From a virus: DNA of 38,998 nt. Below the pieces are notes generated by a model, which searched no databases, was not told the DNA's origin, and was given only the letters and a program-made list of their open reading frames with translations. The position numbers were made by a program, and so were the translations under genes. The stretch lies in the IMG/VR virus record IMGVR_UViG_3300021420_000082, positions 1 to 38,998 of that record, one strand, 5' to 3'. Below are positions 608 through 32,162 of this stretch, piece by piece; positions within the stretch are counted from its first letter, which is position 1, and every line of letters begins with the position of its first letter.

Positions 608-1654
608 ATGGCTAGAGATCACGCGAGGATTCATCTCGATATCTGGGGTGACGACGAATGGCTAGACCTCCCCGTCGATGCCCAAATGCTCTACTTCACG
701 CTCTACACCAGCGAGGCCAGAACCTTGTGCGGGTCGCACGAATGGAACCCGCGGAAGCTCGCCCAACGCGCCGTCGACTGGAACATGGAACGCATCCACG
801 ACGCCGCCGAAATCCTGTCGGCAGAGCTGTTTCTGATCATCGACGTCGACACCGAAGAATGCCTAATGCGGTCCTGGATCAAGCACGACGGGCTCTGGCG
901 TACACCGAACATGGCCGTCTCGGTGGCCAACGCTCGAGGCTCACTCGCGTCCCGAACCCTGCGTGGAGTGATCGTCCACGAGGTGTTGAAGCTACGCGAA
1001 CTAGAGCCAGAATCGACGTCCTGGCAAAGGCCGGCGGTGCAGTCGATGCTCAGTCAGAAGCCCATCGACCCGGCCGATTTGGAGCCGTTTAAGGGTGTCT
1101 CTAACCCCAGCTCTAACGGTGCCTCTAAGGGTGGCTCTAACCCTTGCGAAATCGTTGAGCCAACGGTGCCTCCAAGGGTGGACTTAACGATTTCTAACCC
1201 CAGCTCCAAGGGTGGCTCCAAGGGTGGCCCTACTAACGCTATCCCTATCACTAACGCTAACTACATCACTGACGAAGACGTCGTCGTCGAACCCGCGCAC
1301 ATCGACAACCCAGCCAAGCCCACTAAGCGGCACCCGTCATCCGGAGCGCAGGCCGTCGTCCGCCAAGTCCTCGGCAACAGCTATCCGCGAACAACTGTCG
1401 ACCGGCTCGCCGTCCAGGTCGAAAAGCTCGCCCACGAAGGCCAACCCGATGCACTGATCCGGGAAGCGCTCACCGAATGGGACCAGCGACCCGACTGCAC
1501 AAAACCCGAGTTCCTGCCGACCGTCCTCGGCGATGTCGTCAAACGGTCACGCGCGAGACCCGACGCCGGCCTGAACGCAGGCGAATCGAAAGTCGCCGGC
1601 TGGGCAGCCCTCGGACAACCCCAACCCCCACACCTGAAAGCGATCAACGAATGA
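608..1654 (+). CDS. Phage replication initiator-like protein (winged-helix N-terminus)
   Basis: 348 residues. The N-terminal ~120 residues (DIWGDDEWLDLPVDAQMLYF, then WNPRKLAQ-like helices and LIIDVDTEECLMRSWIKHDG) resemble the helix-turn-helix/DnaD-type N-terminal domain of phage replisome organisers and initiators. A low-complexity linker (residues ~160-220, repeated NPSS/KGGS units) joins it to a C-terminal helical region (~245-320). The DNA encoding the linker is a cluster of near-perfect short repeats, listed separately as a putative origin. The next gene starts at the stop codon (ATGA) and looks like a helicase loader, so the pair would play the role of lambda O and P. The initiator assignment is by pattern recognition and gene order; no catalytic residues are expected. 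The alternative is a generic phage DNA-binding protein. Confidence 0.65.
   Translation: MARDHARIHLDIWGDDEWLDLPVDAQMLYFTLYTSEARTLCGSHEWNPRKLAQRAVDWNMERIHDAAEILSAELFLIIDVDTEECLMRSWIKHDGLWRTPNMAVSVANARGSLASRTLRGVIVHEVLKLRELEPESTSWQRPAVQSMLSQKPIDPADLEPFKGVSNPSSNGASKGGSNPCEIVEPTVPPRVDLTISNPSSKGGSKGGPTNAIPITNANYITDEDVVVEPAHIDNPAKPTKRHPSSGAQAVVRQVLGNSYPRTTVDRLAVQVEKLAHEGQPDALIREALTEWDQRPDCTKPEFLPTVLGDVVKRSRARPDAGLNAGESKVAGWAALGQPQPPHLKAINE
1089..1260 (+). repeat. Iteron-like repeat cluster, putative phage replication origin
   Basis: Short direct repeats lie inside the initiator gene. A 20-base unit, AACGGTGCCTCTAAGGGTGG at 1115-1134, recurs at 1162-1181 with one change (CTC CAAG for CTC TAAG). CTAACCCCAGCTC occurs at 1101-1113 and 1194-1206. 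CTCCAAGGGTGG is tandem at 1204-1215 and 1216-1227. ACTAACGCTA occurs at 1232-1241 and 1250-1259. The similarity is stronger in DNA than in the protein, and the stretch is rich in TAA steps in an otherwise GC-rich gene. In lambda-like phages the initiator binds iterons within its own gene, followed by an easily melted segment. That this is the origin is inference. Confidence 0.55.
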
Positions 1655-2010
1655 CCAACGCCATCGAGACCGCCGCACAAGCGCTCGCGAAGTGTGCCGC
1701 CTACGACCCGTGGTTTCCCCAGCCGAACCGGGCGACCGTCGCGGCGTGGGCTGAGCAGATCGACCACTGGAAGCTCGAGCTACCGGATGTGCTGGCCGGT
1801 GTCGCGAAGATGTACGCCGACAACGGGAATGGGTTCCGGCCGCTACCGAAAGACCTGGCTGATGCGGCCCGTGCGATCCGTGCCGATCGGACGCAGCGGG
1901 AGTCGGCCGCCGAACGTGAAGCCCGCGAAGACCGCCGTGACGCCCAGCTTGCGCAGCGCAATATGGCCGCGCTCACAAGTCGTTTCGGGAAGTCGATCGA
2001 CTATGCCTGA
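1651..2010 (+). CDS. Putative helicase loader (G39P-like)
   Basis: 119 residues, ATG overlapping the initiator stop (ATGA). The first ~75 residues follow the pattern of the SPP1 G39P helicase loader/inhibitor domain and of similar actinophage proteins: a hydrophobic helix, an aromatic-rich WFPQP segment, W in AAWAEQI, an alternating L/V helix (ELPDVLAGVAKMYADNG), then FRPLPKDLADAAR, where loaders carry a P-P-T-I-A-D-I-type motif. The rest is a highly charged helix (RADRTQRESAAEREAREDRR). Position next to the initiator supports a role in bringing the host replicative helicase to the origin. No Walker motif is present, so it is not a DnaC-type ATPase. The assignment is by pattern and context. 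Confidence 0.5.
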   Translation: MTNAIETAAQALAKCAAYDPWFPQPNRATVAAWAEQIDHWKLELPDVLAGVAKMYADNGNGFRPLPKDLADAARAIRADRTQRESAAEREAREDRRDAQLAQRNMAALTSRFGKSIDYA

Positions 2011-2899: not shown

Positions 2900-3096
2900 G
2901 CGACGAACTGCGCGAGGCGCAAATCCGAAACAACGAACGCCACCACATCGCGTACCTACTAGAGCAACATGGCGACACCATCGTGAGCTACCTAAGCGAC
3001 CCACGCGACGCCGTGAAGTTAATCGCGTATCTGCTGCGGCTCGAAGCGAACAGGGACAGTGCGAATGCCGCCGACACTGCGGACGGTGCACGATGA
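2896..3096 (+). CDS. Small hypothetical helical protein (66 aa)
   Basis: 66 residues, ATG overlapping the previous stop (ATGA) and its own stop overlapping the next start. The sequence is mostly charged helix (SDELREAQIRNNERHHIAYL, then DAVKLIAYLLRLEANRD). No family recognised. Coupled overlaps at both ends and normal codon use support a genuine gene. Confidence 0.6.
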   Translation: MSDELREAQIRNNERHHIAYLLEQHGDTIVSYLSDPRDAVKLIAYLLRLEANRDSANAADTADGAR

Positions 3097-26379: not shown

Positions 26380-28421
26380 CGCAAGCCAGCGGCACACCGT
26401 ACTGGCCGGCGTCCACCACCCCGGACACGGCCGTTCACTCCGGCAACCCGGACGCCGGACTGCACGGACTGTCCCAGCAGCAGGTCAACGCACTGCGCAA
26501 CGAGCTGATCCAGATCACCGTGCAGACGGTGTATCAGGCGCTCACCGGAATCTTCCCGCTGGGCGCATCCGCGTTCGGGCTGTTGGCGTCCTGGGCCGGC
26601 GTGGTGCCGCTGGTGAACCCGGTGACCAATCAGCTACCCACAGGGGTCATCCCGGATACACCCTTGGTGTTGGGGTCCGCGCAGGCATTGTCGCAGCAGG
26701 CCATCGCCAAACCCGGGTACCTGGCAGTGGATGCCTCCGCTGACGCGGTGTTCCCGATCGCGAACATTCAGGGCACTACGCCGACGGTGGTATCGGTCTC
26801 GGCTGGCGCGTCGGTCATCGGATTCATACCGACCCCGGACAACGGCAAAAAGAGCTCGATCATATGGCTCGGCCAAAACACCAGCGGCATAACGGGTTTC
26901 TTCATCAACCTGTACAAGCTGAACACGTCCACCGGGGCGCTAACCCTCGTGCAGGGTTCCACGAACATCGTGTCGTCAGTGTCGAACACGCTGGCCTGGA
27001 ATTACTACAACCTGACTGCGCCGACCACCACCAGCGTGAGCGACGTCTACGCCGTCGAGGTGGTCGTCACCGGCAGCGGCACCTACCAGATCGCCGGGAT
27101 GCCCAACCATTGGCTACCCGCGAACGCCTCGGTGTACCCGCGACAGATGGGCGCCACCCGCGCCCCCATAGCAGTCACCTACGACGCTACCGGCGCAGGC
27201 TATACCGCTTCCCCCAACGCCTCCACAGCATCCGGTTCCTGGTCCCACACCGCGGCAGCGGGGGCCACGGTGATCGTCTCCGTCGCAACTCAGCAGAACT
27301 CCAGCACGCCAACGACCACGGCAACCTACGGCGGCGTCGCGATGACCAGCCTCGGCATCAGCGTCAACCCGACCGCAGGCAATACGTCGGTTCAGTTGTT
27401 CGGACTGCAGAACGTAGCGGGCGGACCCAAGACCGTCGCCGTCAGCCTCAACGCTGGAAGCAACACGGTTCAAAACTTTGCGGGACAGTCGGCTTCCTAC
27501 ACCGGGGTCGGGGGACTGCAGACTGCCGTCACCAACGGCGGCACCTCAGGGTCCTTGTCGTCGGGTTCTGTGCCATCCGCACTGCAAAACATGGTCGTCT
27601 GCGCCTTCGTAGCGGGCGCGGGCAGCGCATTCTCTATGACGAGTTACAGTGGTACGCAACGCGCTTCGCAGTCAGTCAACAGCGGTGGCAACTATCTCGT
27701 CACGGCCCTCGGTGACACCCCGGGAACATCGTCATCCAGTATCACGGTGACTGCATCCGATGGTGGCGCGTGGTGGGCTTCGGTGGCCGTGGACCTGATC
27801 CCGACCCTGGAACCGGCCCCTACCACCCCGGCCTTCACCTACTCGGGGAATGTGCCGTGGTTCGGCCTCGGCGGCTTCCTGTTCGCCGGCCCACTGACCA
27901 CCCAATACAACACTGCGGGCAGCCACACCTACACCATCCCCACCTGGCTCAAATGGGGCGACAAGATCGACATCGCCGCCCTCGGCGCCGGTGCGGGCGG
28001 CCTGTCATCGGCGGCGTGGCTCGCAGGCTACGGCGGACTAGCCGGCAGTTGGATGCCCCAGACGTTGGTGTACGGCGTCGATATTCCGGCCACCACAACA
28101 TCATTGACGGTGACCGTGGGCGCAGGCGGCAGTGGTAGCGGCGGCTCAGGCGGCAACTCGACCATCACCGGTACGGGCGTCACCACGATCACCGCAAACG
28201 GCGGCACCGGAAACACCGGAAGCGCAAACGCCGGACCCGGACCCGGAAACCAGGCGCTAAACGGCATCACCTACACAGGCGGCGGCGCCCAGAACACCCA
28301 AGGTGGCAACGGTATTGCACCGGGCGGCGGCGGCGCTGGCGGCTTCCCCTACGGCCCCGGCGGCGCCGGCGCGGACGGCTCAGTCTGGCTCGTCGCCTAC
28401 CAAGCCGGAACAGCCCCATAA
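26376..28421 (+). CDS. Minor tail protein with glycine-rich end
   Basis: 681 residues from GTG 26376, which overlaps the previous stop (GTGA). After an N-terminal helical attachment segment (LSQQQVNALRNELIQITVQT) it has a beta-rich part (SVIGFIPTPDNGKKSSIIWL, VYAVEVVVTGSGTYQIAGMP), then an Ig-like module with SWSHTAAAGATVIVSVATQQ (~295-480). The last ~130 residues are glycine-rich (VTVGAGGSGSGGSGGNSTIT to GAGGFPYGPGGAGADGSVWL), the fold of phage glycine-rich tip domains such as the S16/T2 adhesin type. These often bind surface receptors. A tail fibre or adhesin is likely. Confidence 0.78.
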   Translation: MTQASGTPYWPASTTPDTAVHSGNPDAGLHGLSQQQVNALRNELIQITVQTVYQALTGIFPLGASAFGLLASWAGVVPLVNPVTNQLPTGVIPDTPLVLGSAQALSQQAIAKPGYLAVDASADAVFPIANIQGTTPTVVSVSAGASVIGFIPTPDNGKKSSIIWLGQNTSGITGFFINLYKLNTSTGALTLVQGSTNIVSSVSNTLAWNYYNLTAPTTTSVSDVYAVEVVVTGSGTYQIAGMPNHWLPANASVYPRQMGATRAPIAVTYDATGAGYTASPNASTASGSWSHTAAAGATVIVSVATQQNSSTPTTTATYGGVAMTSLGISVNPTAGNTSVQLFGLQNVAGGPKTVAVSLNAGSNTVQNFAGQSASYTGVGGLQTAVTNGGTSGSLSSGSVPSALQNMVVCAFVAGAGSAFSMTSYSGTQRASQSVNSGGNYLVTALGDTPGTSSSSITVTASDGGAWWASVAVDLIPTLEPAPTTPAFTYSGNVPWFGLGGFLFAGPLTTQYNTAGSHTYTIPTWLKWGDKIDIAALGAGAGGLSSAAWLAGYGGLAGSWMPQTLVYGVDIPATTTSLTVTVGAGGSGSGGSGGNSTITGTGVTTITANGGTGNTGSANAGPGPGNQALNGITYTGGGAQNTQGGNGIAPGGGGAGGFPYGPGGAGADGSVWLVAYQAGTAP

Positions 28422-30407: not shown

Positions 30408-32162
30408 ATGCCCGGTAACAACAGCACCACCTACTCGACGGCGGGCACTTTCACGTGGTCGACGCCGACCCCGTGCTCGCAGGTGTGGTTCTACTGCTGG
30501 GGTGGAGGCGGTGCTGGCGGCAATACCGGCGTCGGGTCCAGCGGTGGTGGTGGCGGCGGTGGCGGGTTTTCGATGACCACCGTTGTCAACCCTTCGGGCA
30601 ACTACACACTCGTGGTCCCGGGGGCTGCGAGTGGGGCGAATGCGAGCGGCAGCTCGGCGACCGTCAACACCACGCTCTGCGTTGCCAACGGTGGTGGCGG
30701 CGGCGCGACTGGCGGCTTCGGCACAAACGGCCCCGGGGGTGCCGGCGCGACAGCCGGTACCGGGTCAGTGACCTACACCGGTGGCGCTGGCGCTACTGGT
30801 GGCGGTGGTGGAGGCGGTGCTGGTTCGGGTGGCAATGGTTCGGCGAGCACGTCGGGTTCCGGCGGTAGCGGCGGCATTACGGACGGCTCTGGCGGCACGG
30901 GCGGTGCTGGCGGCGGCAACAACTCCAGCGGGTCAGCCCCCGGTGGTGGTGGCGGCGGCAATTCGGGTACCGCAGTAGGTTCGGGCGCGGCCGGCAAGAT
31001 CATCGTCTTCTGGCTGTCGAACACCACCTATCCGGTGTCGGCGAGCGCCAGCTCGACAGGTTCAGCAAGCTTGGTCCGCCGGGTGGGTAAACCGTTTGCG
31101 CTGACCACCACCGACACCGTGGCGTTGGCGCGCATGGTGAGCAAGACTGCTAGCCCGGTGTCGACCGACGTGGCGGCCCTCGCCAGAACTGTCGGCAAGC
31201 CCCTGGCCGCCGCGTCGGCGGACACCGCCAGGGTTACCCGTTCTGTCGGTAAGGCATTGGCTGCGGCATCCACGCAGAGTGTCGCGATCATCCGGCAGCT
31301 CGGCAAGACAATCGGGGGCGCCGCCCAGGCGACAGCCGATCTGGCCAGCGTTGCCAAGCAGATCGAGAAAGTTGTGACCGTCACCGTTGCCGCGGGCAGC
31401 GTCGCGACCATCGTCCGCCGGGTGGCCCGAACATTCACGGGCAGCACTTCTGATGCCGCGACATTGAATCGCCAAGTGGGAAAGCCTTTCTCCGCTGCCA
31501 TCGCCAACGCTGCGGCGCTGATTCGGGTCGCGTCATTGTCGCGGACACTCGCCCCTGCGACATCTTCTGCGGCGTCCTTGGTCCGCCAGATCGGCCGGAC
31601 CCTCAACGTGGCGGAAGTGGATGCTGCATCCATCACACGCCAGATTGACCGAACTGTCACAGGTACTTCGTCCGGTGTCGTGGCACTGAATCGCCAAGTG
31701 TCGAAGGCGTTATCCAGCACCGTTACCGGTACCTCGGTATTGAGCAAGCAGGTTGGAAAGTCCCTCGCCGCGGCGGTCGCTGGTGCCGCGTCTGTGTCTC
31801 GTGCCTTGGGTCTCACGCGAGTTGTCGCAGTGGCCACCACCAGCACCGCTGCACTCGCAAAAGCAGCGTCCCGCACGCTCACCGCCGCCTCAACGAACTC
31901 CGCGGCTACGGTCCGCCAGCTCGGCAAGACGCTGACCTCTGCCGCAGCCAGCGGGGGCGCAATCACCCGCGTGCTCTCTGTCAGCCGCACAGCCGCAGCA
32001 ACCAGTGTCAGCGTCGCAACGCTGACCAAGCAACTATCAAAAGCATTGGCCGCTAACGCAACCAGCGCGGCCGAAACCATCGTCGGCATCCCCGCCGCGA
32101 TCCTCGGACGACTGGGCAACGCCACCGTCGTCAAACGCATCATCCAGATTTTCGACGACTAG
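30408..32162 (+). CDS. Tail fibre: glycine-rich domain plus 18-residue repeats
   Basis: 584 residues, ATG directly after the previous stop. Residues ~1-35 contain FTWSTPTPCSQVWFYCWGGG, the opening of phage glycine-rich tip proteins; residues ~30-205 are dominated by glycine runs, closing with GKIIVFWLSNTTYPVSASA. From ~215 to ~550 the chain is a tandem repeat of about 18 units of 18 residues (a few of 20), roughly L-x-R-Q-V-G-K-x-L-x-A-A-x-x-x-A-A-x. The final ~25 residues (AILGRLGNATVVKRIIQIFD) differ. It is the last tail gene before lysis, where receptor-binding fibres usually lie. Confidence 0.78.
   Translation: MPGNNSTTYSTAGTFTWSTPTPCSQVWFYCWGGGGAGGNTGVGSSGGGGGGGGFSMTTVVNPSGNYTLVVPGAASGANASGSSATVNTTLCVANGGGGGATGGFGTNGPGGAGATAGTGSVTYTGGAGATGGGGGGGAGSGGNGSASTSGSGGSGGITDGSGGTGGAGGGNNSSGSAPGGGGGGNSGTAVGSGAAGKIIVFWLSNTTYPVSASASSTGSASLVRRVGKPFALTTTDTVALARMVSKTASPVSTDVAALARTVGKPLAAASADTARVTRSVGKALAAASTQSVAIIRQLGKTIGGAAQATADLASVAKQIEKVVTVTVAAGSVATIVRRVARTFTGSTSDAATLNRQVGKPFSAAIANAAALIRVASLSRTLAPATSSAASLVRQIGRTLNVAEVDAASITRQIDRTVTGTSSGVVALNRQVSKALSSTVTGTSVLSKQVGKSLAAAVAGAASVSRALGLTRVVAVATTSTAALAKAASRTLTAASTNSAATVRQLGKTLTSAAASGGAITRVLSVSRTAAATSVSVATLTKQLSKALAANATSAAETIVGIPAAILGRLGNATVVKRIIQIFDD
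31047..32075 (+). repeat. Degenerate 54-base (18-residue) tandem repeats in the fibre gene
   Basis: About 18 protein units in register, for example LVRRVGKPFALTTTDTVA, LARMVSKTASPVSTDVAA, LARTVGKPLAAASADTAR and LNRQVGKPFSAAIANAAA. A basic residue stands at position 3 and usually 7, with hydrophobics at 1, 5 and 9. Several units carry two extra residues (for example LIRVASLSRTLAPATSSAAS). The DNA copies are diverged, so the repeat is old and maintained by selection on the protein. Confidence 0.75.

What the first reader, a model, noticed from the sequence alone, without database searches (positions are those of the whole stretch)
1089..1260. Putative replication origin of iterons inside the initiator gene
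Four sets of direct repeats (20-base unit twice with one mismatch, 13-base unit twice, tandem 12-base unit, 10-base unit twice) are packed into 170 bases within the replication gene. They are conserved more as DNA than as protein and lie in TAA-rich sequence. This copies the lambda arrangement, where O protein binds iterons in its own gene. Origins are rarely mapped in mycobacteriophages, so a visible candidate is valuable.
Basis: partly seen in the sequence, partly recalled or inferred. Interest (0 to 1): 0.7.

Follow-up and report, generated by a model that had tools for sequence, protein, structure and literature searches.

The report
Phage replication origin inside initiator gene
Inside the gene for a phage's replication-starting protein lies a block of short repeated DNA words followed by the most easily melted stretch of the genome, which very probably is where the phage starts copying its DNA; the same layout recurs in almost every relative examined, although the place itself has apparently never been mapped by experiment in this family.

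Summary
Window 1088-1228 holds ten ~12-bp repeats in three blocks inside the initiator gene (608-1654). This is the most repetitive segment of the window, and no synonymous recoding of the same protein reproduces it (0 of 5000). One 20-bp copy lies in a different reading frame, so selection on the peptide cannot explain it.

In 28 non-redundant relatives the linker carries the same DNA word: TAACCC 90 times against 0.25 expected, read in two frames. A helically weak, NCT-codon-rich element follows. Repeat sequence tracks the N-terminal domain, not the C-terminal domain. Phages with an unrelated N-domain (Che8 type) carry different repeats. In Arthrobacter phage Mufasa8, whose initiator gene stops after the N-domain, the repeats and weak element lie just past the stop codon.

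Best explanation (0.88): a lambda-ori-like intragenic replication origin bound by its own initiator. It is not a member of the lambda O family by sequence. New variant of a known kind, testable in hundreds of actinobacteriophages. No binding or replication data exist here. The mycobacterial host is unproven.

The parts
608..1654 (+). replication initiator gene (348 aa): N-terminal domain aa 1-160, origin-bearing linker aa 161-223, C-terminal domain aa ~225-348
   Evidence: phrog_3171 'replication initiation protein' E 4.5e-75 and phrog_8064; tblastn matches in 342 phage records; N-domain model pLDDT 91
1088..1147 (+). iteron block A: five 12-bp units (1088, 1100, 1112, 1124, 1136), in the reading frame of the gene
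1159..1182 (+). iteron block B: two 12-bp units (1159, 1171) shifted into a different reading frame
   Evidence: 19/20 identity with 1115-1134
1193..1228 (+). iteron block C: three 12-bp units (1193, 1205, 1217)
1148..1194 (.). inverted repeat (arms 1148-1164 and 1178-1194, 82% complementary) flanking block B; role unclear
   Evidence: I3; fold of the whole region not better than shuffles, z -1.29
1229..1276 (+). candidate DNA unwinding element: least stable 40-mer of the whole window (1230-1269); all 7 A/P/S/T codons in 1229-1270 end in T
   Evidence: rank 1 of the window; p 0.00065 against synonymous recoding; family-wide
1651..2010 (+). next gene, phrog_4296; its relatives are annotated 'helicase loader' in Che8 and Samman98
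   Evidence: E 1.2e-49; annotations

Best explanation
This is the phage's replication origin, built like lambda ori and placed in the linker of its own initiator. The N-terminal domain of the gene product binds the 12-bp iterons at 1088-1228 in several copies. The assembled complex strains and opens the adjoining weak element at 1229-1276. The C-terminal domain, with the neighbouring putative loader (1651-2010), then brings the host replicative helicase onto the exposed strand. Shown here: the repeats, their independence from the peptide, their conservation and covariation with the N-domain, and the weak element next to them. Inferred: binding by the N-domain, strand opening, helicase recruitment and origin activity.
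For: Repeats exceed every synonymous recoding and cross reading frames. TAACCC occurs 90 times in 28 linkers against 0.25 expected, in two frames; the palindrome GGGGTTAACCCC occurs in 11 of 28 against 0.0 expected. Per-relative recoding test for TAASSS is at most 0.001 in 25 of 28. The NCT-codon element appears 30-50 codons after the N-domain. 1230-1269 is the least stable 40-mer of the window; the least stable 40-mer within 1 kb lies at +92 to +157 from the N-domain end in 23 of 28 relatives. Iteron similarity follows the N-domain (partial Mantel r 0.45, 0 of 2000 permutations) and not the C-domain (r 0.05, p 0.28). Unrelated N-domains carry other repeats in the same place. In Mufasa8 the repeats and weak element lie after the end of a short initiator gene. 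The N-domain model matches predicted phage 'replisome organizer' folds.
Against: No binding, footprint or replication data. N-domain and iterons are adjacent, so shared inheritance alone could produce part of the covariation. The N-domain has no confident match among solved structures. BarretLemon has repeats after its short initiator gene but its least stable 40-mer lies elsewhere. MoxS-R1 has the weak element but no clear iterons.
Confidence: 0.88

Rival explanations
1. The repeats are only a repetitive, flexible linker peptide (period four residues, such as SNPS or SKGG); the DNA repeats are a by-product.
For: Most units are in frame and encode four-residue repeats; the linker joins two domains.
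Against: 0 of 5000 synonymous recodings reach the observed repeat count. The 20-mer recurs in another frame and encodes a different peptide. TAACCC is read in two frames across the family. In Mufasa8 the repeats lie after the initiator's stop codon.
Confidence: 0.03
2. The array is an operator: the initiator binds its own gene to regulate its synthesis or transcription of the operon, and replication starts elsewhere.
For: Initiators often autoregulate (general knowledge); binding sites alone do not prove an origin.
Against: An operator needs no adjacent unwinding element, yet the weakest stretch of the window sits here and does so across the family. Sites lie mid-gene, some 480 bp inside the reading frame, not at the start of the gene.
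Confidence: 0.06
3. The array is a partition, packaging or other structural phage site.
For: parS loci in some mycobacteriophages are arrays of 8-bp repeats (PMC7157519).
Against: It lies in the initiator and covaries with its N-domain; the large terminase gene is some 5.7 kb away (6994); an integrase gene is present, so no partition system is needed.
Confidence: 0.03

Closest known systems
Lambda ori in gene O (lambdoid phages)
   Same: Origin in the middle of the initiator gene; iterons followed by a weak or AT-rich tract (as described in PMC7466680); next gene P is a helicase loader.
   Different: 12-bp TAA-SSS units, ten of them, instead of four iterons that are each inverted repeats; the weak element is rich in NCT triplets; no sequence relation to O in Pfam.
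RepA origins of extrachromosomal cluster A mycobacteriophages (Miko, Rachaly and others; PMC7157519)
   Same: A mycobacteriophage gene annotated 'RepA-like replication initiator'; those authors suspected an origin upstream of or within repA.
   Different: Plasmid-type RepA of another family: no hit of the N-domain profile in Miko RepA; the authors found no repeated motifs in the intervals they searched there.
Intragenic origins of Gram-positive phages such as TP901-1 or Tuc2009 (from my own knowledge, not retrieved here)
   Same: Repeats within the rep gene act as origin.
   Different: Low-GC hosts and other initiator families; not tested here.
Iteron plasmids (P1 RepA and others; reviewed in PMC4980987, seen only as a search result)
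   Same: Directly repeated initiator sites beside an AT-rich unwinding region.
   Different: Here the repeats lie inside the gene, and no DnaA boxes are present above chance.

Membership tests
lambda O initiator family | sequence match to the phage replication protein O family | tested here: not met
   Pfam-A gives no family up to E 1 for the window protein
lambda-type intragenic origin (architecture) | direct repeats inside the initiator gene between N- and C-domains | tested here: met
lambda-type intragenic origin (architecture) | helically weak tract directly beside the iterons | tested here: met
   1230-1269 is the least stable 40-mer of the window; family-wide
lambda-type intragenic origin (architecture) | helicase loader gene adjacent | tested here: inconclusive
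   1651-2010 is phrog_4296, annotated helicase loader in some records; function not tested
lambda-type intragenic origin (architecture) | initiator binds the iterons and replication starts there | not testable with these tools
   needs footprinting and replication assays
phrog_3171 / phrog_8064 replication initiation proteins | profile match over the N-domain | tested here: met
   E 4.5e-75 and 1.7e-47
iteron plasmid origin | host DnaA boxes near the iterons | tested here: not met
   7 sites with one mismatch in the window against 9.3 expected, none near 1088-1276
plasmid-type RepA of Miko | homology of the N-domain | tested here: not met
   no hmmsearch hit at E 10

The most novel reading that the evidence does not exclude
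A family-wide actinobacteriophage origin module (winged-helix-like N-domain, 12-bp TAA-SSS iterons, strand-asymmetric NCT element) in which the DNA dictates the linker peptide and moves as a unit against exchangeable C-domain and loader modules; the NCT element would be a specific single-strand binding site for the opened strand, in the manner of DnaA-trios, rather than merely weak DNA.
Probability: 0.2. Interest if true: 0.75.

Novelty: new variant of a known kind. Interest (0 to 1): 0.58.

Why it matters
Few mycobacteriophage origins have been mapped. This gives one precise, base-level candidate that can be recognised in relatives among the 342 phage records matching this initiator, many of which infect M. 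smegmatis or Gordonia in the laboratory. It turns a general question (where and how do these phages start replication?) into a simple test: scramble the linker synonymously. It also shows a coding sequence whose peptide is dictated by an overlapping DNA code, and gives candidate parts for new mycobacterial and Gordonia replicons.

Tried and rejected
Sequence search of solved structures with the N-domain profile gave no relative, and fold search of PDB only weak winged-helix matches. Pfam and NCBIfam do not know the protein. Host DnaA boxes: none above chance. Single-strand folding of the region: not unusual (z -1.29). A scan of viral contigs for the bare 19-bp pattern of two iteron cores was too unspecific; a stricter pattern in the window's style found only an unrelated tandem repeat. 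The idea that the gene after the repeats in Mufasa8 or BarretLemon supplies the missing C-domain found no support by HMM. Plasmid collection: no match to the origin segment. Host assignment was not achieved; distant genomic relatives lie in Gordonia, Mycolicibacterium, Mycobacterium, Mycolicibacter, Rhodococcus and Nocardia. My translation of the window C-domain was out of frame and was not used; the C-domain result rests.

Full report
WHAT WAS CLAIMED.

OBSERVATION. The repeats are real. They reduce to one 12-bp unit, roughly T[CT][CT]AA[CG][CG][CG][CT]nnn, in three blocks: 1088-1147 (five units), 1159-1182 (two), 1193-1228 (three). Within blocks the spacing is exactly 12; between blocks it is 23 and 22. 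The middle block therefore lies in another reading frame: the 20-mer at 1115-1134 recurs at 1162-1181 with one mismatch, but encodes PTVPPRV instead of NGASKG. Segment 1091-1273 has 42 pairs of shared 8-mers, 15 of them between frames. None of 5000 synonymous recodings with the window's codon usage reaches either number (maximum 28 and 6), and no other place in the window does (next best 22, none off-frame). A shuffle of synonymous codons within the segment also fails to reach either (0 of 5000).

SECOND ELEMENT. Directly downstream, 1230-1269 is the least stable 40-bp stretch of the entire 38,998-bp window by nearest-neighbour energy. Its seven A/P/S/T codons all end in T, against 10% in other genes of the window, and a recoding is as weak in 0.065% of cases.

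THE GENE. 608-1654 matches phrog_3171 and phrog_8064, replication initiation proteins; 342 phage records contain a tblastn match. The protein is modular. Its N-domain (aa 1-160) is shared with Gordonia, Mycobacterium and Rhodococcus phages. Its C-domain (aa 225-348) and the next gene are shared with cluster-F mycobacteriophages such as Che8 and Estave1, whose N-domain is different. The N-domain is predicted with high confidence (pLDDT 91) and resembles predicted phage 'replisome organizer' proteins (E 6e-7, TM 0.72); PDB gives only weak winged-helix matches.

RELATIVES. In 28 non-redundant relatives (the window among them) the 162-bp linker holds TAACCC 90 times against 0.25 expected from the flanks, in 24 of 28, read as T-AAC-CC in 63 cases and TA-ACC-C in 27. 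TAAGGG occurs 14 times against 0.16. GGGGTTAACCCC occurs in 11 of 28 against 0.0. Synonymous recoding fails to reproduce the TAASSS count (p at most 0.001) in 25 of 28. The exceptions are L005 (0.042) and L050 and L018, which use the variant TGACCC. After the repeats the share of NCT among A/P/S/T codons rises from about 10% to 50-70% for some 20 codons. The least stable 40-mer within 1 kb lies at +92 to +157 from the N-domain end in 23 of 28, and at +47 or +49 in two more.

COVARIATION AND NATURAL EXPERIMENTS. Iteron similarity follows N-domain identity after correction for the C-domain (partial r 0.45, 0 of 2000 permutations), not the reverse (0.05, p 0.28). Adjacency may contribute to this. 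Che8, Estave1 and OwlsT2W, with an unrelated N-domain, carry 8-bp tandem repeats GA[AG]CAGGG in their own linker, 38 off-frame 8-mer pairs, 0 of 1000 recodings. William and L038, more distant, carry GGTTTRCCCC-type repeats; William's linker is followed by a similar NCT stretch. In Mufasa8 the initiator gene is only 489 bp long and ends at 2474. Twelve-bp AACCC/AAGGG repeats lie at 2475-2531 and 2662-2742, followed by ACTCCTTA repeats that form the least stable 40-mer of the 4.4-kb locus. An ORF is annotated there (gp50), but it is not the initiator. BarretLemon has repeats in the gap after its short initiator gene, though its weakest stretch is elsewhere. MoxS-R1 has only the weak element.

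INTERPRETATION. The evidence fits an origin that works like lambda ori (PMC7466680 describes iterons and AT-rich tract in the middle of gene O). Initiator binding, unwinding and helicase loading are inferred. It is not an O-family member by Pfam, and it lacks DnaA boxes, unlike many iteron plasmids. The nearest literature statement found is the suspicion of an intragenic origin in another, plasmid-type RepA family of cluster A phages, where no repeats were identified (PMC7157519); Miko RepA does not match this N-domain. Seven literature searches found no mapped origin for the present family; subscription papers are largely missing from that library.

LIMITS. Everything is computed from sequence. 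The host of the window is unknown. Annotated names such as 'helicase loader' are annotations, not tests. Stability values come from a nearest-neighbour sum, not a superhelical model. The 28 relatives were chosen by N-domain score above 250 bits; weaker relatives were looked at one by one, not counted.

Noticed in passing
L005, L009, L010, L015, L020, L050, L065, L091, L094 and others, just after the NCT element: Relatives with the GYVS-type C-domain keep GGTTACGTAAGT nearly letter for letter, with very rare codons (GTA, AGT); a further DNA-level element or module boundary, absent from the window.
   Followed up: partly
L166 about 2936-3071 (minus strand): An unrelated viral ORF of about 277 aa from a 44% GC contig carries GATAACCCC repeats in its linker, which looks like a convergent intragenic origin.
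   Followed up: partly
L048, L049, L054 (Estave1, OwlsT2W, Che8) initiator linkers: A second candidate origin type in cluster-F phages: 8-bp tandem GA[AG]CAGGG repeats crossing reading frames.
   Followed up: partly
window 1148-1194: Inverted repeat GAAATCGTTGAG ... CTTAACGATTTC around the off-frame iteron block.
   Followed up: partly
L055 2589-2670: Microbacterium phage vB_MoxS-R1: CTACAT repeats after a short initiator gene, with an exact TTATCCACA (DnaA-box-like) nearby.
   Followed up: no
window 28201-28400 and 30781-31000: The next most repetitive stretches of the window, purely in frame, so probably peptide repeats.
   Followed up: no
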